Positions 28,496-38,272 of a DNA stretch of 64,000 bases are shown piece after piece. A program made the position numbers and the translations under genes. The first letter of the stretch is position 1; each line of letters begins with the position of its first letter. The DNA is from Acidobacteriota bacterium (GTDB lineage Bacteria; Acidobacteriota; Blastocatellia; Pyrinomonadales; Pyrinomonadaceae), in the NCBI GenBank assembly GCA_019239425.1, contig JAFAZX010000028.1, forward strand, positions 62,001 through 126,000. The letters are read 5' to 3'. The notes below the pieces were generated by a model. The model had not been told where the DNA came from. It searched no databases and saw nothing but the letters and a program-made list of their open reading frames with translations.

Positions 28496-29404
28496 ATGCA
28501 GGACGTGAGTTCACAGGCCGCGGGCGCGCACGCCTCCGAGGCGAAGCTCAAAGCTTCGGCCGCGCGCCTCTCCGTCCTGGCCGCCGCCTTCCTCATCGCC
28601 CTCAAGACCGTGACGGGCCTGCTGACGGGTTCGATCAGCGTCTGGGCCTCGCTGCTCGACTCGGCGATGGACATCTTCGCGTCCGTCATCAACTACTACG
28701 CCGTGCGCGCCGCGGCCGTGCCGCCCGACGAAGACCACCGCTACGGCCACGGCAAGGCGGAGTCGCTCGCCGGCCTCTTCCAGTCCTTCGTCATCGGCGC
28801 GTCCGGCCTCTTCCTGATGTGGGAGGCGATCCGGCGCATCATCACGCCGCACCCGACCGCAGAGGAGTGGCTGGGCGTGGGCACGATGGCCGTCGCCTGC
28901 GGCGTGAGCGTCGCGCTCGTCAGGCGTCTCCGCCAGGTCGCGCGCAAGACCGACTCGCCCGCGCTAACGGCCGACGCCGCCCACTACATCACCGACGTCT
29001 ACACGAACGGCGCCGCGCTCTTCGCGCTCTTCTTCGTCGCGCTCACCGGCTGGACGCTGGCCGACCCCGTCGTCTCGCTCCTCATCTCCGGCTTCATCCT
29101 CTACTCCGCCTTCGAGGTGGCGCGCGACTCTGTGCACGTGCTGATGGACAGGCGACTCCCGCGCGCCATCGACGACAAGGTCGCGTCGGTCGTCGAGCGC
29201 TTCCGCGGGGAGGGCGTCCTCGGCTTCCACGACCTGCGCACGCGCCGCTCCGGCTCGCACAAGTTCATCGACCTCCACCTCGAAGTCGAGGCCGACCAGA
29301 CGCTCCAACAGGCGCACGACCTCACCGTCCGCGTCATCCGCGCCCTCCAGCAGGAGATACCCCGTTCGAGGGTGCAGATACACACAGACCCGGCCGGACA
29401 TTGA
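28496..29404 (+). CDS. Cation diffusion facilitator family transporter
   Basis: 302 aa. Six membrane helices in the first ~200 residues. Metal-site motifs are SLLDSAMDIFASVINYYAVRAA (helix 2, two Asp) and DAAHYITDVYTN (helix 5, His and Asp). YGHGKAESLAGLFQS lies between them. The cytosolic C-terminal domain (about 205-295) ends HDLTVRVIRAL. Exports zinc, iron or manganese in exchange for protons. Its 3' end borders the cassette array: an attC half-site remnant begins one base after its stop. Confidence 0.93.
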   Translation: MQDVSSQAAGAHASEAKLKASAARLSVLAAAFLIALKTVTGLLTGSISVWASLLDSAMDIFASVINYYAVRAAAVPPDEDHRYGHGKAESLAGLFQSFVIGASGLFLMWEAIRRIITPHPTAEEWLGVGTMAVACGVSVALVRRLRQVARKTDSPALTADAAHYITDVYTNGAALFALFFVALTGWTLADPVVSLLISGFILYSAFEVARDSVHVLMDRRLPRAIDDKVASVVERFRGEGVLGFHDLRTRRSGSHKFIDLHLEVEADQTLQQAHDLTVRVIRALQQEIPRSRVQIHTDPAGH

Positions 29405-29414
29405 GTTGTCAGGC
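29405..29414 (-). other. attC half-site remnant at cassette-array edge
   Basis: The plus strand reads GTTGTCAGGC, 9 of 10 identical to the R'' end of the best attC in the array (GTTGTTAGGC at 35001-35010). It lies 21 bases 3' of the 126-aa cassette gene, where an attC is expected, and immediately abuts the CDF gene. The rest of the site is missing. Confidence 0.5.
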
Positions 29415-29435
29415 GGCGCACCAACTTAAACCTCT

Positions 29436-29816
29436 TCAGCCTTCGGCGGACTCCTCCCACCCGAGTTTGCCCAAGGCATCCACGCGCCGCAGGTTCCTCT
29501 GAATGTAGAGCTTGGGGAATTCGAAATTCAGCCGCGCCTCGCGGCCGCCCGCGCGTACGAGCAGCGACAACTCAATGCGGAACTCCCCGTCGTCTCGCCA
29601 GATCGGCGCGTGCGCCCCGGGGGCGAGGTCGGTGACGTGCACGTCGGCGGCCTGACTGTGCCCGAAGTCGCCCCACTCGGTGCTGACCCGGTATAACGCC
29701 GCGGATTCGAGGGGCACGTCCCCGTCATTAATCAGGTAGAAGCGCCACTCGCCGGCGCCGACCTGCGGCTCTCGGCAGGCGGCCACGCGGCAGCGGATCC
29801 GCTCGCTTTCATTCAT
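29436..29816 (-). CDS. Hypothetical cassette protein, 126 aa
   Basis: No family recognised. Mostly beta-rich (EWRFYLINDGDVPLESAAL; FRIELSLLVRAGG), resembling a small beta-sandwich, with no signal peptide or membrane segment. It starts about 19 bases after the attC-like site at 29835 on the minus strand and is followed by an attC half-site. It therefore looks like the last cassette of the array. Confidence 0.6.
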   Translation of the reverse strand: MNESERIRCRVAACREPQVGAGEWRFYLINDGDVPLESAALYRVSTEWGDFGHSQAADVHVTDLAPGAHAPIWRDDGEFRIELSLLVRAGGREARLNFEFPKLYIQRNLRRVDALGKLGWEESAEG

Positions 29817-29834
29817 AGGCCCGCGTCCTCTTGC

Positions 29835-29938
29835 CCCTAACGCCCGACATTACCCGCCGCGCCGAGCCATTGAATATATTTGACAGGCGGCACGCCGCCG
29901 CTCGATTACGACCAGGTCAAGGTGTGCGCCACTTAGCC
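29835..29938 (-). other. attC-like recombination site 4 (degenerate)
   Basis: On the minus strand it runs from a GGCTAAG core to a GTTAGGG core, with inner arms that end CGGCGGGTAATGTCGGGC, matching the other sites. It starts within about 15 bases of the PhoD-like stop. The cores deviate from RYYYAAC/GTTRRRY by one base each. Confidence 0.6.
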
Positions 29939-29950
29939 GCAGGGGCACCG

Positions 29951-32023
29951 TCAGATCGACAGTCCGACCTCGCCTTCCAGAACTCGTTGCTCGAGGCGCG
30001 GCCGCTCGCCCGGTGCCCAAAGCTTGGCGACGTGCGCGACGCGGTAGCGTAGCGGCCCGCCGTCCGGGCTCGCGCTGCGGCTGATCGGCCGCGGGATGCA
30101 CACGAACTCGGTGCGCATCTCACCGCCGGTGAGGCGCACCTTCGCGTAGCCGTGGCCGCCCAGGTCGACGAACTCTAGTTGCGGCGCGAGCTGCGGGTTC
30201 GAGAGCGCGCGTGCGCGCTGGAGGTTGAAGCTCTTCGCGTATTCGAGGCAAGAGCGGACGCCGTGCCGGAGCAGCATGTTGTTGCTCCAGTCCGGCTTAC
30301 CGCCATCCGGCCGGTCGGCGAGGAACAATGCGCGGAGCGGGTGCTCCTTGCGTAAGCCATGCTCAAGAGCTTCCATCGTGCCCGGGCTTGCGAGCGACGC
30401 GCCGACGAAGCTCAATCCCACGGGCTCGAATTTCCGAGGCGGGAGTTCGGCCGCGGCATACCCCGCCCAGAAGCTGTGACGGTCTCCGGATACGATGGCG
30501 AAGCCGGTGATCTTCGCGTCGCGCACGAGGTCGTAAATCTCCTTGCGCTCGGCGTAGGCCGCTCCGTAGTCGTCAGTGCGGAAGATGGCGTAGGTATCCG
30601 CGGGCCACGGATTCTTGACCATTCCAGCGGGGAGATTTTGCGGGTCCGCGCGATGGTCGATAGCGCCGAGCGAATTGCCCCAGATTTTCCACGTCGCCTT
30701 CGATTTGCGCAGTTGGTCTTTGAACCATGCCTTCTGTTCGACGCCGAGGATGGTGCGCGGCGGCGTCTCCTTGCGCGGATTCGGAATGCGCGCGTCGCGG
30801 AAATGGAGTTCGGCGGGCGGCTTTCCGCCGTCGAAGGCGCGTCCCGCGTCGAGCGCGATTGTCGCCTCCTCGGAGAACATTCCGTTGAAGGCGGGGTCAT
30901 AGATTTTTCCAACCCCCTCGGCGTCAGTCGGGTCGTCGCCGCAGAAGCTGTGCTGGTCGGTGAGGAGGAGGTCGAGGTGCTTGCCGTAGCGGAACGCCCG
31001 GTAAGCGATCAGGCTGCGGATCGCGGTCAGATTGTTCGGCTCAAGCCCTAGTCCGTTCTCGTCCCACTTGTCGATCTTGACGTTCTTGACCGCGACCGCA
31101 CCGAATTCGGCAAGCGAGCCGCTCGGAGGCTGGACGCGAGCCGGGACGTATTCGAACCAGGCCTGGTTGGCGGCGACCTTGACGGTCTGACCGGGCTGCG
31201 GCTCGCCGCCCGCCTGGACGATGCTCTGTCGGCCCTGCCAAGAGAATTCGTGATTGTCCCAGATGGCGACGAACGGCCAGCGCGCGCGGGCATCCTGGAG
31301 GTCGGGGTCGGCGAGGTAGCCCTTGTACACGGCGCGATAGCCTTCGACGGTCAGCGGTATGTGGAATGACCTGGCGACCTTCAGGCCATCCGGGATGCGC
31401 GCAACCTCATAGATCGTGCGGTCGTAGCGTGTCTTCACCTCGTCGGGGTACTCGACCACCTCGTAGATGAAATCACCCAGGTGCAGAACGAAATTGAGTT
31501 GGTCGGCCGCCGGAGCGCGTTCATCTTCGTAAATCATCCGGCGATAGGCGTTGAGCTTGCCCTCGTTGACATCCTGACAGCTCACGAAGGCGAAGTTCAC
31601 AGGCCGCGCGTCGTTCGGCCGCGGCGCGGTGATGGTGCGGCCGATGCGGCTGCCGTTGCCGTCCGCGTCGGTGAATCGATACCAATAGACCCGCGCCGGC
31701 TTGAGCCCGCCGACCAGCACTCGGGCCGTCCAGTCGGTCGCCGGCGAAACCGGAGCGGGCGCCTGCGCCACGACCCGGCGGAACCGCTCGTCTTCGGCGA
31801 CTTCGACCGTCAGCATCTGGCGCTCGCTTTTCTCGAAGGGCCTGCGCGTCCACAGAATCACGCTGCCGGAGTCCGGGTCGCCCGATGCGACGCCTTCCGG
31901 GAACAGGTCGCGTCGCTCCCGCCAGTTTACTTTGGAACGCGCGCTCGCCGCCCCGCCCAACGCTAAGGCCGCGCCGCAGGCCGCGGCCTGTCTGATGAAT
32001 TCTCGCCGGTTGACTCTGCCCAT
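29951..32023 (-). CDS. PhoD-like alkaline phosphatase/phosphodiesterase
   Basis: 690 aa. A Tat signal (RREFIRQAAA, then a hydrophobic stretch ending ASA) sends it folded across the membrane. The PhoD N-terminal domain opens FPEGVASGDPDSGSVILWTR. The metallophosphatase domain shows NFAFVSCQDVNEG, VLHLGDFIYE, AIWDNHEFSW and ITGFAIVSGDRHSFWAGY, which supply the metal ligands. It should release phosphate from phosphodiesters outside the cytoplasm. It has a good GAGGAG ribosome site. It lies between attC-like sites, making it an unusually large cassette, with lower G+C than the chromosome around. Confidence 0.9.
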   Translation of the reverse strand: MGRVNRREFIRQAAACGAALALGGAASARSKVNWRERRDLFPEGVASGDPDSGSVILWTRRPFEKSERQMLTVEVAEDERFRRVVAQAPAPVSPATDWTARVLVGGLKPARVYWYRFTDADGNGSRIGRTITAPRPNDARPVNFAFVSCQDVNEGKLNAYRRMIYEDERAPAADQLNFVLHLGDFIYEVVEYPDEVKTRYDRTIYEVARIPDGLKVARSFHIPLTVEGYRAVYKGYLADPDLQDARARWPFVAIWDNHEFSWQGRQSIVQAGGEPQPGQTVKVAANQAWFEYVPARVQPPSGSLAEFGAVAVKNVKIDKWDENGLGLEPNNLTAIRSLIAYRAFRYGKHLDLLLTDQHSFCGDDPTDAEGVGKIYDPAFNGMFSEEATIALDAGRAFDGGKPPAELHFRDARIPNPRKETPPRTILGVEQKAWFKDQLRKSKATWKIWGNSLGAIDHRADPQNLPAGMVKNPWPADTYAIFRTDDYGAAYAERKEIYDLVRDAKITGFAIVSGDRHSFWAGYAAAELPPRKFEPVGLSFVGASLASPGTMEALEHGLRKEHPLRALFLADRPDGGKPDWSNNMLLRHGVRSCLEYAKSFNLQRARALSNPQLAPQLEFVDLGGHGYAKVRLTGGEMRTEFVCIPRPISRSASPDGGPLRYRVAHVAKLWAPGERPRLEQRVLEGEVGLSI

Positions 32024-32284
32024 ATCATTCTCCTCACTTCGACTCGGTCGCCGTGATGTCCAGACGCGTCGAAGCGGACGCGTGGATTGTTCCTCAATAC
32101 AAGTTCATCTAATTACGAGCCCGGTTCGATGAGGTGTGAGATCGAGTTGATTCGCAACACGCGCCTTTAAGGATAGTTCGTTCGCTTTGAATAAACTTTC
32201 GTTAGATTTAATCCATCTCTTGAGAAGCAGACCTTATACTTACAGCTTATTACGGGTGAGGACTTGCAAGGTTTCACCGGAACG
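32024..32284. other. Intergenic leader of the PhoD-like gene
   Basis: About 260 bases, much richer in A+T than the surrounding genes, between the PhoD-like start and attC-like site 5. No open frame of note. A promoter for the PhoD-like gene is likely here, but I could not single out a convincing -35/-10 pair. Confidence 0.4.
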
Positions 32285-32369
32285 AGTTGACGCTCGGCGT
32301 TACCCGCCAGCGAGATTAGATTTGATGAGAGGCGGCGTGTCGGAAGTCGAGTTCGTGCCGTGGTTCGGC
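32285..32369 (-). other. attC-like recombination site 5 (degenerate)
   Basis: The plus strand half at 32290-32307 matches the corresponding half of sites 2 and 3 in about 16 of 20 positions. The other half (GTGCCGTGGTTCGGCG, 32355-32370) matches ATGCCGTTGTTAGGCG of site 1 with few changes. It sits 11 bases after the stop of the VOC fragment, where a cassette attC belongs. Confidence 0.5.
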
Positions 32370-32379
32370 GGCGGGCGGC

Positions 32380-32475
32380 TCAGAGTTCCTGGCCGAACAT
32401 AATCCGGTGCCCGTCCGGAGTGCGCACGCCGAACTCGCGCATCCCCCAGGGCTTGTCTGCGAGACCCTGCATTCT
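32380..32475 (-). pseudogene. 3' fragment of a VOC/glyoxalase-family gene
   Basis: Thirty residues ending KPWGMREFGVRTPDGHR-IMFGQEL, then TGA. This is the C-terminal signature of vicinal-oxygen-chelate (glyoxalase/bleomycin-resistance) proteins. Upstream the frame meets a stop at about 32508, and the rest of the gene is absent. Too short to function. It appears to be the surviving 3' end of an older cassette that still carries its attC-like site. Confidence 0.65.
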
Positions 32476-32547
32476 ACCGCCATGCTGAGGACACGTGTGC
32501 AGTAGTCAATTACAATTTGATGAGAGATCCGCGAGCCATGCCAGATA

Positions 32548-33666
32548 TCAACTTCGCGGCGCGATGTAACTCCGTCGGGCTTTGATGACCATTTTGCCTT
32601 GCGATTTCTGTCGCGCGGGATCGATGTCGAGTTTCAATTTACGCGTCGTGCCGTCCCGCTTTTTGTTCGTCGAGACGAACGCCATGTTGTAGCGACTGCG
32701 CAGGTGATCGATCAGCGTTTGGAAGGTCGTGTCTAGCTTGTCAGGTCTGTCCGCGAGCACTTCGCCGCCGGTCTCGTTCGCCAAATGTTCCAGGTCCATG
32801 TAGTCGGCAGCGATAACTTTGTTCAAGCGAGTGGTAGCGTATTCGAGCGCATTGTCGACACGTCGGACCAGGACGTTGGGAATGATGGCGCAAACGACCG
32901 CCCCCGATTCGTAAACCGCGTTGGTGGCTTCTCGATTGGAAGGTCCGTTGGTGCAATCGAACAGAGTCGTCATGGACGTAATCACGATGATGACGCGACG
33001 TCCGGCCGGATTGCTCGCCTTGAGCATGTGCTCCGCGGCGTCCGCAAACATGATGTTGAAGCATTTCGCTTGGCTTACAGTTTTTGCCTGCGGTGGAATG
33101 TTCTCCAGCGCGTTCCAGAGCAGTATGCGGTTACGCGTGAACGGCTGAATTAGCTGAGCGGTATCGGTGAAGGACATCACCGCGACCTCATCGACAGGTT
33201 TGAGACGATCAATTGCTTCACGCGCGGCGCGATGTGCCTGGTAGCTCCAGACATCGTTCGGATGCGGACAGGTAGGCCCGCGATAGATGGCGACCACCAC
33301 CGAGAGCGGCAGCTCATCCTGGCTGAAGTGTGTAATCTCCTGTTTGATTCCATCTTCGTAAAGCAGGAAATCTTCTTTCTGCAAACCGCCGACGATGCGC
33401 GCTGTGTTCTTCTGCAGCACCAGCGCATCGATTTTGACGAGGTCGACATCGACCTTGACGACGTCCTCCGGCGACTCGGGGGTGGGCGTCGGCGCGGGCC
33501 TGGGCGGAAGCCGGTCCGCTTTTCGACCCTGGCGTCCGGTGTTCGCATTCAAGTTCTTGTCGGGCGTCTGCGAAGTGGCCGGGCTGCTTGGGTAGAAGAG
33601 CAGGGCCGCAAGGACGAGCGAGGTGACTAGAAACAGAGGCCGCAGGATGGATCGTTGATATTTCAT
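32548..33666 (-). CDS. VWFA-related acidobacterial domain protein
   Basis: 372 aa. Signal peptide (hydrophobic run ending PATSQ, about residue 33) and a Pro/Arg-rich linker. Then VKVDVDLVKIDALVLQ and LQKEDFLLYEDGIKQEI, the opening of the VWFA-related domain described in Acidobacteria (TIGR03436). The later VWA core has ELPLSVVVAIYRG in place of the usual DTSGS metal site, so metal binding is doubtful. Secreted, role unknown. Start chosen at the ATG preceded by AGAGGG. G+C is visibly lower than the chromosome, and the gene sits between attC-like sites. Confidence 0.85.
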   Translation of the reverse strand: MKYQRSILRPLFLVTSLVLAALLFYPSSPATSQTPDKNLNANTGRQGRKADRLPPRPAPTPTPESPEDVVKVDVDLVKIDALVLQKNTARIVGGLQKEDFLLYEDGIKQEITHFSQDELPLSVVVAIYRGPTCPHPNDVWSYQAHRAAREAIDRLKPVDEVAVMSFTDTAQLIQPFTRNRILLWNALENIPPQAKTVSQAKCFNIMFADAAEHMLKASNPAGRRVIIVITSMTTLFDCTNGPSNREATNAVYESGAVVCAIIPNVLVRRVDNALEYATTRLNKVIAADYMDLEHLANETGGEVLADRPDKLDTTFQTLIDHLRSRYNMAFVSTNKKRDGTTRKLKLDIDPARQKSQGKMVIKARRSYIAPRS

Positions 33667-33695
33667 TAGCCCTCTCATTCAGAGGCAGTTGAGCC

Positions 33696-33784
33696 GCCCA
33701 ACGCCCGGCATCACCCGCCGCGCGGCCCCATCAATTAACGTGAGAATCTTCGTGTCCGCAGTCGGGTGCATGCCGTTGTCGGGC
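33696..33784 (-). other. attC recombination site 3
   Basis: On the minus strand it runs from GCCCGAC (R'', one mismatch) through the arm AACGGCATGCACC to GGGTGATGCCGGGC and GTTGGGC (R', a perfect GTTRRRY). 89 bp, imperfect palindrome. The stop codon of the 165-aa gene lies within it. Confidence 0.8.
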
Positions 33785-34228
33785 GCGGCGTACGATGGTT
33801 ATATCCGGCTCGCCGACTGAGACAACATCGAGGATATGATTCTCGCAGACGATTTCGTAATGGTTAAGCTTGCCCGGATACTCGTCGGAGGCGAAGGTCG
33901 CAGTGCGGACGTAATCGAGGAAGTGGGACTTCGAGTAGACGCGGAATAAACGCCCGACGTACTCCTCAGACTTATCCTCTGGGGTGTACGACTCATTCCT
34001 TACGGAATAAGCCACATAACTGCCGAATAAGACTTCATAGGCATAACACGTATCATCGGAGATGATAGGGCGGGCGCCAGCTAAGACTACGTCGCCGATC
34101 TTCATCTCCTCGGGTTCGCTGCTGGCTCGTGCCTCTTCGATTACCAGCCTGAGCACATTATCTTCCGGCTCGCCAATCTCGGCGAGGTACAGGTATGCGT
34201 GCGCGTTTATTTGCTCAACCAGTTCCAT
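33731..34228 (-). CDS. Hypothetical cassette protein, 165 aa
   Basis: Start at the ATG coding MELVEQINAHAYLYL; the longer frame begins inside attC site 2. No domain recognised. A mixed alpha/beta soluble protein, acidic, with aromatic-rich CYAYEVLFGSYVAYSV and no signal peptide. The last ~17 residues (after TIVRRARQ) are encoded by attC site 3, showing that the original gene was capped by the recombination site. G+C well below the surrounding chromosome. Confidence 0.65.
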   Translation of the reverse strand: MELVEQINAHAYLYLAEIGEPEDNVLRLVIEEARASSEPEEMKIGDVVLAGARPIISDDTCYAYEVLFGSYVAYSVRNESYTPEDKSEEYVGRLFRVYSKSHFLDYVRTATFASDEYPGKLNHYEIVCENHILDVVSVGEPDITIVRRARQRHAPDCGHEDSHVN

Positions 34229-34239
34229 AACTTTAAAGC

Positions 34240-34329
34240 GCCCAACGCCCGGCATCACCCGCCGCCCAGAGCGAGTGGAGAAATTTGAAAGCTGCCGTGT
34301 CGCGGGTCGGGCGCATGCCGTTGTTAGCT
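34240..34329 (-). other. attC recombination site 2
   Basis: On the minus strand it runs AGCTAAC, AACGGCATGCGCC ... GGGTGATGCCGGGC, GTTGGGC. 90 bp with imperfectly paired arms. R' fits GTTRRRY exactly and R'' has one mismatch. The plus-strand outer 25 bases are almost identical to site 3. Confidence 0.85.
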
Positions 34330-34361
34330 GCGGCCCCCGGCCTGGCTGTATTCGCGGCCAG

Positions 34362-34892
34362 TCATCTCCTTCGGACGAACGAGAGCGGCTCGTTGACCGA
34401 TGGGTCTCCGAGAGTCAGCACCATCCTATACTCCGCCCCCTCGCGGTATAGCAACCCCCTCCCCTCCGCCTCCTGGTGCATGAGGTAGACCGCCCACGTG
34501 TCCTGCTGACGGTACAGGTTCCAACTCCCCCGCCACGAGGCGAGCTGTACCCGGGGGACACTCCTCGGGCTGAAGTATGGCACCCCCACCAACTCGAAGG
34601 AACCTTTCCCGAGGTCGAGGCGGGTGGCCGCGGGAGGCCAGGAGCTAAGCCCACCGAGGCGTGCCGCGGTGGCTTCGTCGGGAACCCACACGCCCGTCAA
34701 CTCCGTCTCCGCCGGCTTACCCGAAGGCGGCAGCGGGGCGACGCCCCGAGCGACGCCCTCAGCCGGGCCGCGCCCCTTCAAGCCGAGTATGCCTGGCAGC
34801 GAGTACACGGAGTAGACTAGGGCTACGCCGGTGGCACAGAGGAAGAAGATTCTCCCCGGGCTCAACTTAGCTGATTTACCATCGCCGTTCAT
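34362..34892 (-). CDS. Hypothetical membrane-anchored cassette protein, 176 aa
   Basis: ATG at 34892 with GGTGA upstream; an ATG at 34913 is also possible. One N-terminal membrane helix (about 12-35; FFLCATGVALVYSVYSLPG) and a Pro/Gly-rich linker precede a periplasmic-type beta domain (about 65-176) with LTGVWVPDE, GSWNLYRQQ and LTLGDPSVNEPLSFVRR. The pattern recalls small lipoprotein-like cassette proteins, but no named family is recognised. Confidence 0.65.
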   Translation of the reverse strand: MNGDGKSAKLSPGRIFFLCATGVALVYSVYSLPGILGLKGRGPAEGVARGVAPLPPSGKPAETELTGVWVPDEATAARLGGLSSWPPAATRLDLGKGSFELVGVPYFSPRSVPRVQLASWRGSWNLYRQQDTWAVYLMHQEAEGRGLLYREGAEYRMVLTLGDPSVNEPLSFVRRR

Positions 34893-34920
34893 CGGAAAGT
34901 CACCCACACACATTCGGAGC

Positions 34921-35010
34921 AGCTAACGCCCGGCATCAGCGGGCGCGCGGCCCCGTTGAGGAAACATGACAGGGTGAGTGTCCGCGCTCCGCCGCATGCC
35001 GTTGTTAGGC
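34921..35010 (-). other. attC recombination site 1 (best match)
   Basis: On the minus strand: GCCTAAC (R'', perfect RYYYAAC), arm AACGGCATGCGGCGG, a central spacer, then CCGCTGATGCCGGGC and GTTAGCT (R', one mismatch). 90 bp. The architecture and sequence are those of attC sites in environmental integrons. It begins 17 bases after the stop of the 150-aa gene. Confidence 0.9.
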
Positions 35011-35026
35011 GCGGCACTGATGGCAG

Positions 35027-35479
35027 TCAATTATCGAAGAAGAAGACTACCCGCACCGACCCAGCCCTCCCATGCTCGCGTAGTGTCGGAAGGAATCTCT
35101 CCACAAAATCTTGACAGACCTCTCCCTCGCTACGCCCTTCCTGAATAGCGCTCCGTCGCGACCAGTCATAAGACAGTAATTCGTCCGCCACAAGCCAGCT
35201 ATGGCTATGACCCTCCGGCCCCCACTCACGGCAGATCCGAGAGCCGATTTCACTGAGGTCGGACGGGATGCCCTTCGGCGGCGAGATCGGCCTGAGCTTG
35301 ATTGAGCCACCATTTCTGACATCTGCAAGAAGGGCGAAGAGGTAGTAATTACGTTCAGGGTAAGGCTCTTCCCACACAACCCACGACTCGCGCCCCTCTC
35401 CACAAATGCGATAAGGATGCGCGAACTTCCACATTGCCCCGTCGAAAGTCTCCACCCAGAGATGAATGTCGCAACCCAT
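35027..35479 (-). CDS. MGCDIH-type hypothetical protein (phage/cassette family)
   Basis: 150 aa starting MGCDIHLWVE, with NYYLFALLADVRNG, ISPPKGIPSDLSEI and WGPEGHSHSWL. This set of motifs recurs in hypothetical proteins of phages and bacterial accessory regions. Conserved His, Asp and Cys near the N-terminus suggest metal binding, unproven. No signal peptide. It is the first complete cassette, with a GTTAGGC core 34 bases upstream of its ATG and attC site 1 downstream. Confidence 0.75.
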   Translation of the reverse strand: MGCDIHLWVETFDGAMWKFAHPYRICGEGRESWVVWEEPYPERNYYLFALLADVRNGGSIKLRPISPPKGIPSDLSEIGSRICREWGPEGHSHSWLVADELLSYDWSRRSAIQEGRSEGEVCQDFVERFLPTLREHGRAGSVRVVFFFDN

Positions 35480-35512
35480 GGCAATCGATTAGTCCGACGA
35501 TATAAGGCTAGC

Positions 35513-35631
35513 GCCTAACTAATATTGTGCCGAATGTGTCGGCCTAAGTCCGCAATAGGGCGTGAAAAGCCGAACGTATCCGTCTAACTCCACAGTAGGG
35601 CATGAACAGCCGCATCGCTCGGCCTAACTCC
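35513..35631 (-). repeat. Tandem 40-bp repeat carrying attC-core-like heptamers
   Basis: Read on the minus strand there are two full 40-bp units and one partial. Each begins GGAGTTAG or GGACTTAG, with internal TTCGGCT and TTCA(T/C)GCCCTA. The unit starts give GTTAGGC, GTTAGAC and CTTAGGC. A further GTTAGGC (35513-35519) ends the block. The first two and the last fit the integron core GTTRRRY. No coding frame; it fills most of the gap between the first cassette gene and mutS. Confidence 0.75.
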
Positions 35632-35662
35632 GTAAGGAAACCCGCGTCGTACTCAATTTGTC

Positions 35663-38272
35663 TCAAGCCGTCTTGAACGACCTCGCCCCCTTCTCCTTCT
35701 CGCCTTCGGCCAGGCGGCGCAGCTCGAAGAGTTTCATGAGGGCCTCGACGGGGGCGAGCGAGTCTATGTCGGCGGCGAGGAGTTCTTCGACGATGCGCGC
35801 GCCGCGGCCCCAGGCTGAGGCGTCGAACTGTTCGAGCGCTTCGCCCGCGACCCTCTCGTCTTCCGTCCTGCCGGACTCGTATTCGCGCAGGAGTTCTTCG
35901 GCGCGGCGGACGACGGGCGCGGGCAGGCCCGCGAGCTTGGCGGCGTAGACGCCGTAGCTGCCTTCGGCGACGCCGGGCACGACGCGGTAGAGGAAGACGA
36001 GCTCGCCGTCGCGCTCCGCGATCTCGACGTGCAGGTTGCGCAGGCGCGGCAGCGTCTCGGAGAGCGCCGTCAGCTCGTGGTAGTGCGTGGCGAAGAGAGT
36101 CTTCGAGCGCAGGCGCGGGTGGTTGTGCAAGTATTCGAGGACGGCGCGCGCCACCGCCAGGCCGTCGTAGGTCGAGGTGCCGCGCCCGAGTTCGTCCAAA
36201 AGGACGAGCGAGCGCGGCGTGGCGTGGTGGAGGATGTGCGCCGTCTCCGTCATCTCCGTCATGAAGGTGGACTCGCCGCTGCCGATGCGGTCGTAGAGGC
36301 CGATGCGCGTGTAGACGCGGTCGGTGAGGCCGACCGTCGCCGCACGCGCGGGGACGAAACTCCCCGCCTGCGCCATGATGACGACGAGCGCCGCCTGCCT
36401 CAGGTACGTCGACTTGCCGGACATGTTCGGCCCCGTGATGAGCGCGATCTCCGGCGCGCCCGCGCCCCCGAGCTCGAGGTCGTTGGCGACGAACTCGCCC
36501 TCCTCGTTCAGCCTTTCGAGAACGGGGTGGCGCCCGCCGCGGATGTTGAGAACGGGTTCGTCGACGACCGCCGGCCGCACGTAGTTCCAGCGCGCCGCCG
36601 CCTGCGCGAGCGAGGCGACGGCGTCGAGGTGTGCGAGCGTCGAGGCGGCCGAGAGTATCTCTTCGCGCGCGCGGCCGATCTCGGCGCAGACCTGTCTGAA
36701 GATGCCCGCCTCAAGCTCCGTGATGCGCTCCTGCGCGTTGAGGACGAGCGACTCGTGCTCCTTCAGTTCCAGCGTGACGAAGCGCTCGGAGGCGGCGAGC
36801 GTCTGCTTGCGCGTGTAGCCGGCCGGGACGAGGTGGAGGTTCGGACGCGTAACCTCGATGAAGTAGCCGAAGACCTTGTTGTAGCCGACGCGCAGGCTCT
36901 TGATCCCCGTGCGCGCTCGCTCGCGCTGTTCCATCTCGGCGAGGAAGGTCTTGCCGTTCTTGAGGAGCGAGCGTAGAGAGTCCAGCTCTTCCGAGAAGCC
37001 TTCGCGGACGACGCCCGAGCCGTCGCCGCGCCGCGGCAGGTCGTCGTTGATGGCCGAGCGTATGCGACCGAGCACGCCCTCGCACGTCGGAAGCGAAGAG
37101 AGCAGCGCGCCGAACCTCGCGGCCTCGCGTTGCAGCAGGGCGCGCACGCGCGGCACGGCTTCGAGACTCTGCCTGATGGCTAAGACTTCCGAAGGCGTCG
37201 CCAGCCCGGCGCGAGCGCGGCCCGAGAGGCGTTCGAGGTCGTGAACGTTCTCCAGGGCGGCGGCGAGTTCGGCGCGGTCTTTGTCGTGCGCGGCGAACCA
37301 GCCGACGTGCTCCTGCCGCCGCGCGATCTCCGCGAGGTCGAGCAGGGGTTGTCGCAGCCAGCGGCGCAGCATGCGCCCGCCCATCGCCGTGCGCGTCTCG
37401 TCCAGAGTCGCCAGGAGCGAAGGCGCGCCGCCCGTACTGTCGAACAGCTCAAGGCTGCGGACGGCCTGCGCGTCGAGCACCATGTAGGACTCCGGGTTGT
37501 AGCTCGTCAGGCGCGTCAACTGTTCGGAGACGCCCGCCTGCGTCTCCGAAAGGTAGGTGATGACGGCGGCGGCGGCCGTGGCCGCGAGCGGCCAGCGCGA
37601 GAGGCCGAAGGGCGCGAGCGTGCGCGCGCCGAAGTGTCTTTGCAGGACTCGCTTGGCCTGTCCCGGCTCGAAGTTTTCGTCGGGGCGGCGCGTGATGAAG
37701 CCCGGGAGGTTCGAGGCGTGCGCGGCCACGCTCTTCGAAACGAGCACCTCGGAGGGCGCGATGCGTTGCAGCTCCGCGAGCGCGGCGTCGGCGTCGAGTT
37801 CCGTCGCCTGAAAGTCGCCGGTCGTCACGTCGGCGTAGGCCAGACCGGCGCGGCGGCCGTCCGTCGCGAAGGCCGCGAGATAGTTGTTGACCTTGCTCTG
37901 AAGCAGCCCGGTCTCTAAGACCGTGCCGGGCGTGACGACGCGCACCACGTCGCGCTCGATGAGGCCGCGCCCCGCCGCTTCGCCGCGGACGGGCGTCGCG
38001 GTCAACTGCTCGCAGATGGCGACGCGGTGGCCGCGCGAGATGAGCGTCGCGAGGTGTCGTTCGAGACTGTGGTGCGGCACGCCCGCGAGCGGCACGCGCA
38101 GGCCGCGCCCCATCGGCTTCGAGGTGAGCACGATGTCCAGCTCGCGCGCGAGCAGGCGCGCGTCGTCGTCGAATGCTTCGTAGAAGTCGCCGATGCGGAA
38201 GAGGAGGATGGCGTCGGCGTGGCGGCGCTTGATGTCGAGGTACTGCTTGCGGAGCGGCGTGGCCGTGTTCAT
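35663..38272 (-). CDS. mutS: DNA mismatch repair protein MutS
   Basis: 869 aa, normal MutS1 length, from the ATG that overlaps the upstream gene's stop. The mismatch-reading loop is present (LFRIGDFYEAF, residues ~22-32). Connector, core and clamp domains lead to the ATPase with Walker A TGPNMSGKSTYLRQ, Walker B LVLLDELGRGTSTYDG and the FATHYHEL switch. It binds mispairs and recruits MutL (not in the window). The longer frame to 38836 is a readthrough of another gene's region and is rejected. Confidence 0.96.
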   Translation of the reverse strand: MNTATPLRKQYLDIKRRHADAILLFRIGDFYEAFDDDARLLARELDIVLTSKPMGRGLRVPLAGVPHHSLERHLATLISRGHRVAICEQLTATPVRGEAAGRGLIERDVVRVVTPGTVLETGLLQSKVNNYLAAFATDGRRAGLAYADVTTGDFQATELDADAALAELQRIAPSEVLVSKSVAAHASNLPGFITRRPDENFEPGQAKRVLQRHFGARTLAPFGLSRWPLAATAAAAVITYLSETQAGVSEQLTRLTSYNPESYMVLDAQAVRSLELFDSTGGAPSLLATLDETRTAMGGRMLRRWLRQPLLDLAEIARRQEHVGWFAAHDKDRAELAAALENVHDLERLSGRARAGLATPSEVLAIRQSLEAVPRVRALLQREAARFGALLSSLPTCEGVLGRIRSAINDDLPRRGDGSGVVREGFSEELDSLRSLLKNGKTFLAEMEQRERARTGIKSLRVGYNKVFGYFIEVTRPNLHLVPAGYTRKQTLAASERFVTLELKEHESLVLNAQERITELEAGIFRQVCAEIGRAREEILSAASTLAHLDAVASLAQAAARWNYVRPAVVDEPVLNIRGGRHPVLERLNEEGEFVANDLELGGAGAPEIALITGPNMSGKSTYLRQAALVVIMAQAGSFVPARAATVGLTDRVYTRIGLYDRIGSGESTFMTEMTETAHILHHATPRSLVLLDELGRGTSTYDGLAVARAVLEYLHNHPRLRSKTLFATHYHELTALSETLPRLRNLHVEIAERDGELVFLYRVVPGVAEGSYGVYAAKLAGLPAPVVRRAEELLREYESGRTEDERVAGEALEQFDASAWGRGARIVEELLAADIDSLAPVEALMKLFELRRLAEGEKEKGARSFKTA

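What the first reader, a model, noticed from the sequence alone, without database searches (positions are those of the whole stretch)
29405..35631. An integron-type gene-cassette array without an integrase in view
All genes in this 6-kb island run on the minus strand and are punctuated by attC-like sites: site 1 (34921-35010), site 2 (34240-34329), site 3 (33696-33784), site 5 (32285-32369) and site 4 (29835-29938), plus a half-site at 29405. Site 1 has a perfect RYYYAAC core (GCCTAAC), sites 2 and 3 have perfect GTTRRRY cores, and inner arms are shared (AACGGCATG, GATGCCGGGC). Base composition falls well below that of flanking genes. No intI-like gene is present, so it would be called a CALIN unless one lies elsewhere.
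Basis: partly seen in the sequence, partly recalled or inferred. Interest (0 to 1): 0.8.

Follow-up and report, generated by a model that had tools for sequence, protein, structure and literature searches.

The report
Integron cassette array with orphan attI
This soil-bacterium chromosome carries a string of captured mobile gene cassettes wedged between two housekeeping genes, and it starts with its own cassette-docking site of a kind scattered around the genomes of its relatives with no integrase gene beside it, which suggests that one integrase can feed many docking sites at a distance.

Summary
The array is real. Cassette starts pair with the R'' box of their own attC, as circle insertion requires. 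In eight relatives the flanking mutS and cation-efflux genes are near neighbours (17-193 bp), so the 6.2-kb island is extra here. No intact integron integrase was found in the genome, only an N-terminal remnant beside a ~28-cassette array on contig C103.

At 35513-35635 lie three tandem ~40-bp repeats ending in TTCGGCACAATATTAGTTAGGC, an attI-like site. The same family heads arrays at many unrelated loci in this genus and five other genera. A 33-nt pattern gives 23 hits in 162 genomes (0 for the reversed control); all 23 precede an attC, and no intI was found nearby. Some loci keep attI and flanks but differ in cassettes.

Best reading: a cassette array on a dispersed "orphan" attI, filled in trans by an integrase now lost or unassembled. 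New variant of a known kind.

The parts
35513..35635 (-). attI-like site: three tandem ~40-bp repeats (35529, 35569, 35609) ending in the exchange box GTTAGGC (35513-35519; exchange expected after the G at 35519)
   Evidence: the repeat finder D5; HMM from G107/G108 sites only, hit 35574-35513 at 52.7 bits, E 1.2e-14; pattern hits
34927..35518 (-). cassette 1; ORF 35027-35479 (150 aa, unknown)
   Evidence: start box matches R'' of its attC 7/7; no Pfam/NCBIfam/PADLOC match
34921..35010 (-). attC site 1
   Evidence: R1, 88.3 bits
34246..34926 (-). cassette 2; ORF 34362-34913 (183 aa, unknown)
   Evidence: start box matches R'' 7/7
34240..34329 (-). attC site 2
   Evidence: R1, 81.9 bits
33702..34245 (-). 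cassette 3; ORF within 33731-34258 (unknown)
   Evidence: start box matches R'' 6/7
33696..33784 (-). attC site 3
   Evidence: R1, 93.4 bits
32291..33701 (-). cassette 4; VWFA-domain gene 32548-33678 (TIGR03436) plus a possible glyoxalase-like gene remnant near site 5
   Evidence: NCBIfam 127 bits; start box 6/7; remnant weak, Pfam E 0.08
32285..32369 (-). attC site 5, decayed
   Evidence: R1, 34.1 bits, E 1.6e-6
29841..32290 (-). cassette 5; PhoD-like phosphatase gene 29951-32023
   Evidence: Pfam PhoD 1.2e-52; start box 5/7
29835..29922 (-). attC site 4, strongly decayed
   Evidence: R1, 23.1 bits, E 0.0011
29405..29840 (-). probable sixth cassette remnant; ORF 29436-29816 and a half-attC-like end GCCTGACAAC next to the CDF stop
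   Evidence: read directly; half-site 8.4 bits, not significant
28496..29404 (+). resident flank: cation-efflux (CDF) gene
   Evidence: Pfam; adjacent to mutS in eight relatives
35663..38236 (-). resident flank: mutS (3' part used as query)
   Evidence: Pfam

Best explanation
This is a chromosomal integron cassette array without its own integrase gene, sitting in the mutS-CDF spacer and headed by an attI-like primary site. Shown by sequence: five attC sites, cassette boundaries that obey the G/TT exchange rule, an attI-like head of three ~40-bp repeats, and absence of the whole island from the same place in relatives. Inferred: an integron integrase encoded elsewhere bound the head repeats and inserted single-stranded cassette circles after the G at 35519, newest next to mutS, which fits the decay from strong attC near the head to weak ones at the CDF end. 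Readthrough from co-directional mutS may express the first cassettes (inference, untested). The array belongs to a dispersed set of such orphan-attI arrays in the genus, so the integrase would have acted in trans. It is probably static now in this genome, where only an intI N-terminal remnant was found.
For: Independent covariance model finds exactly the five sites. Start boxes match R'' boxes 7,7,6,6,5 of 7 in the window and 180/189 on C103, against 146 by shuffling, 0 of 20,000. Eight relatives have mutS and CDF 17-193 bp apart. attI-like head: HMM without the window 52.7 bits; 33-nt pattern 23 hits, 0 reversed controls in 162 genomes, all 23 followed by an attC. No intI in 585 kb around the genus platforms except the C103 remnant and a broken G106 gene. 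Same platform, different cassettes at two loci; similar cassettes in different arrays. G109 and G036 have an intact IntI on another contig than their orphan-attI array. intI-adjacent attI of relatives show the same 37-42-bp periodicity in six cases.
Against: No intact integrase is seen in this genome or in G107/G108, so the in-trans step is inferred. The attI identification rests on position, repeats and exchange-box logic: a plain HMM of intI-adjacent attI scores the window only 5.8 bits and a palindrome test failed. All genomes are drafts, and integron arrays break assemblies. How a platform reaches a new locus is unexplained.
Confidence: 0.7

Rival explanations
1. Each dispersed array is the rest of a former complete integron (intI plus attI plus cassettes) that lost its own intI by deletion. 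The attI is a relic and nothing acted in trans.
For: CALINs are usually read as degraded integrons (PMC9024848). intI is decayed on C103 and frameshifted in G106, so loss does happen here.
Against: No intI remnant beside any of about 20 orphan sites, which would need many clean independent losses. In the window only about 30 bp separate the repeats from mutS. Repeats often begin right after a resident gene. G109 and G036 keep an intact IntI elsewhere.
Confidence: 0.22
2. Cassettes were inserted at an attG-like chance genomic site, and the likeness to attI is coincidence or convergence.
For: attG insertion of cassettes into genomes is described as broad and without attI or attC features (PMC12444791, PMC12901181).
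Against: The head is one member of a homologous repeat family with no reversed-control hits, all followed by attC, and tandem repeats are not expected of chance sites.
Confidence: 0.06
3. The sites are not attC but terminator or REP-like hairpins between ordinary genes.
For: Single-strand folding energies of the sites are not extreme (best z -1.98). Relatives have inverted-repeat hairpins in the same spacer.
Against: Covariance hits with E down to 1e-21, exchange-box complementarity, co-linear orientation, an intI remnant beside the same site type on C103, and an empty site in relatives.
Confidence: 0.01

Closest known systems
[quoted passage not shown]
   Same: At least two attC sites, co-oriented cassettes, no integrase gene nearby, several such clusters at distinct loci of one genome.
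   Different: Headed by an attI-like site of a homologous dispersed family; CALINs are not described as carrying their own attI in the papers read.
Sedentary chromosomal integron (intI, attI, cassettes), e.g. the C103 array of this genome and the IntI-bearing relatives
   Same: Same attC family, same exchange-box rule, attI with 37-42-bp repeats in several relatives.
   Different: No intI at the locus, a different attI sequence from C103, few cassettes.
attG insertions (Loot et al. 2024, known here only through PMC12901181 and PMC12444791)
   Same: Cassettes inserted in a chromosome away from the integron.
   Different: attG sites are described as diverging from attI and attC; here the target is one repeated attI-like sequence used at many loci.
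Acidobacteria-type attC (PMC8352920)
   Same: attC of chromosomal integrons of Acidobacteriota; a genus member is named Acidobacteria gp4.
   Different: The published covariance model was not available here, so direct membership was not scored.

Membership tests
CALIN | Two or more attC sites in a cluster | tested here: met
   Five R1 hits, three above 80 bits
CALIN | No integron integrase nearby | tested here: met
   No IntI hit in the window; only a remnant on C103
Complete integron | intI gene beside the array | tested here: not met
Complete integron | attI primary site at the head of the array | tested here: inconclusive
   Strong attI-like site by HMM of genus sites, position and exchange box, but weak likeness to intI-adjacent attI by plain HMM and no functional test
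Complete integron | attC sites with R''/R' boxes, stem with extrahelical base, and cassette start matching own R'' box | tested here: met
attG insertion | Insertion at a site unlike attI and attC | tested here: not met
   Target belongs to a repeated attI-like family, 23 hits and 0 controls
Acidobacteria-type attC (PMC8352920) | Score above the published covariance cut-off | not testable with these tools
   Published model not held; IntegronFinder's own model not held either

The most novel reading that the evidence does not exclude
A distributed integron: one integrase gene acts in trans on several dispersed attI platforms per chromosome, each with its own cassette array. Many CALINs in this family would then be working remote platforms rather than degraded integrons.
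Probability: 0.5. Interest if true: 0.75.

Novelty: new variant of a known kind. Interest (0 to 1): 0.6.

Why it matters
CALINs are about as common as complete integrons and their origin is debated: degraded integrons or off-target insertion. A conserved attI-like site heading integrase-less arrays at many loci offers a third, testable answer. It would mean that the integron platform and its integrase can be unlinked, that one genome can run several arrays in different local contexts, and that attI sites outside class 1, which are poorly described and not detected by the standard software (PMC9024848), can be found by their repeat family. Cassette capture in these soil bacteria would then be broader than integrase-linked arrays show.

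Tried and rejected
Rfam scan found nothing at gathering scores. Single-strand folding of each site was uninformative by z-score. A plain HMM of 22 intI-adjacent attI regions was too weak to decide. A palindrome test on attI sites was not significant, so no claim is made for palindromes; only the ~40-bp periodicity stands. XerC/XerD-type hits to the integrase model were set aside as housekeeping: far below cut-off, in all genus members and all control genomes. Other tyrosine recombinases in the genome lie on other contigs than the arrays. The attI pattern has no exact match in viral contigs. PADLOC found no defence gene in the five cassette ORFs tested. No promoter-like site was found in the window head region. 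The half-site at 29405 is kept as suggestive only. The G055 pattern hit has no attC nearby and is judged chance.

Full report
Observation. The finding names five attC-like sites on the minus strand between a cation-efflux (CDF) gene ending at 29404 and mutS, whose stop is at 35663. Searching the genome for the site's 3' end motif gave 35 matches against 3 for the reversed control, most on contig C103. I aligned 22 C103 sites and built a covariance model, R1, that contains no window sequence. The consensus fold has 20 pairs, 11 with at least one compensatory change, and a single bulged G as expected of attC. In the window R1 finds the five sites and nothing else: sites 3, 1 and 2 at 93, 88 and 82 bits, site 5 at 34, site 4 at 23. 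The unfiltered scan puts the next score at 11.5 bits. The half-site at 29405 is at chance level by score.

Cassette logic. When a circular cassette is inserted, the bases after the exchange point (G/TTRRRY) at its start are the complement of the R'' box of its own attC (established integron mechanism). Along the window array the matches are 7, 7, 6, 6 and 5 of 7 from the mutS end to the CDF end. On C103 they are 20 of 27 perfect and 180 of 189 in all, against 146 expected; none of 20,000 shuffles reached it. The fall in attC score and box match towards CDF fits the usual polarity of integrons, newest next to the primary site.

Empty site. In eight relatives, including the two genus members closest by mutS (91% and 87% identical), mutS and CDF are convergent neighbours with 17 to 193 bp between the matched segments. 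Read directly, the spacers are short and some hold an inverted repeat. So about 6.2 kb is extra here. The cassette genes are three unknowns, an acidobacterial VWFA-domain gene (TIGR03436), a PhoD-like phosphatase and a further unknown at the CDF end. The five cassette ORFs tested match no defence family.

The integrase. The genome (7.4 Mb, 94.6% complete, 103 contigs) has no integron integrase over the cut-off. The only true piece is about 75 N-terminal residues, frameshifted, next to the ~28-cassette array on C103. The other hits are XerC/XerD-like. In the order, 44 of 119 genomes have IntI at E below 1e-40. G106, of the same genus, has one at a contig end, broken by a frameshift; its record is named Acidobacteria gp4, which places the host. 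Genome-wide, R1 gives 65-66 attC sites: the C103 array plus more than a dozen smaller dispersed clusters or single sites, of which the window's is one.

The head of the array. On the minus strand the first cassette is preceded by three ~40-bp direct repeats (family D5) ending in TTCGGCACAATATTAGTTAGGC, whose last seven bases are the exchange box. The same sequence heads two further arrays on contig C55. As a pattern it recurs in this genus with no reversed-control hit, and the repeat alone also marks mostly array heads. An HMM trained on eight sites from G107 and G108 scores the window site at 52.7 bits, E 1.2e-14. Of 20 full-length HMM sites in the genus loci, 19 have an attC downstream, and 16 of these match its R'' box at 6 or 7 of 7 positions. 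A 33-nt pattern searched over 162 genomes of the class gives 23 hits in 8 genomes and 0 reversed controls. All 23 have an attC on the same strand downstream. Six of the hits lie outside the genus, in five other genera; of five of these read for the exchange box, four match the first attC 7/7.

Why I call it attI. intI-adjacent attI regions of relatives end in sequences like TAATNNTAGTTRGGC at the same place, the start of the first cassette. Six of 23, C103's own among them, show a significant 37-42-bp periodicity, as several orphan sites do. Weak points: a plain HMM of those intI-adjacent sites scores the window only 5.8 bits, though that is its best window hit, and a palindrome test failed.

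Activity in trans (inference). No integrase lies in 585 kb around the genus platforms and two G039 loci, apart from the C103 remnant and the broken G106 gene. Yet platforms show exchange. G000_C18/G107_C94 and G108_C67 share the upstream flank up to the attI and a short downstream match, but hold about 0.5 and 9 kb of different content between them. G107_C50 and G108_C65 share both flanks (about 85% identity) with different cassettes between. Similar cassettes occur in different arrays, for example G107_C67 and C103 at 83% over 298 bp. G109 and G036 have an intact IntI on other contigs than their orphan-attI arrays. Hence the inference that an integrase elsewhere serves several attI sites. How a platform arrives at a new locus is not explained.

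Caveats. All are draft genomes. G000_C18 and G107_C94 are 100% identical over 4.5 kb although mutS differs by 9%, so one contig was probably binned twice. G035 and G038 likewise share an intI contig by coordinates and score, so G038 is not used as an in-trans example. Draft assemblies overstate CALINs (PMC9024848), but here both flanks, the attI-like head and all attC lie on one contig with mutS and CDF.

Against the literature. CALINs are usually read as degraded integrons (PMC9024848) or compared with attG insertions (PMC12444791, PMC12901181). Acidobacterial attC are known (PMC8352920). attI sites outside class 1 are poorly described (PMC9024848), and one attI per integron is the rule stated for Treponema (PMC3607928). 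Searches of the held library for orphan or multiple attI found nothing, which does not exclude papers that are not held. I therefore rate it a new variant of a known kind.

Noticed in passing
L037/L038 (G000:C103:72700-89550): A ~28-cassette chromosomal integron array with a truncated, frameshifted intI N-terminus beside its attI; the likely main integron of this genome.
   Followed up: yes
L095 5745-5775 (-) and L043 about 1780 (+) (G000:C21 and C64): Two further array heads with attI-like ends of other sequence types (GTCTGTATAATCACAAGTTAGAT and GGGTCTAATTACAAAGTTAGGT), each matching the R'' box of the next attC.
   Followed up: partly
L041 2931-2952 and 5615-5636 (G000:C55): Two attI-like heads in tandem about 2.7 kb apart on one contig, each with its own first cassette, in a region with about a dozen attC sites.
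   Followed up: partly
window 32381-32482 (-): C-terminal piece of a possible glyoxalase/VOC protein next to attC site 5 (Pfam E 0.08), perhaps the cassette's original gene before the VWFA gene.
   Followed up: partly
L082, L083, L086 (mutS-CDF spacer of G107, G108, G039): The empty spacer holds long near-perfect inverted repeats, different in each genome; whether they relate to the island's insertion is unknown.
   Followed up: no
L099 and L121 (G000:C18, G107:C94); G035:C216 and G038:C299: Identical contigs in two different draft genomes, a sign of shared or misplaced contigs in the bins.
   Followed up: partly
L118, L122, L123, L125 (G107 C26; G108 C40, C98, C104), upstream of the attI-like sites: Promoter-looking sequences by eye just upstream of several orphan attI sites, while others directly follow a resident gene's stop codon (sequences).
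   Followed up: no
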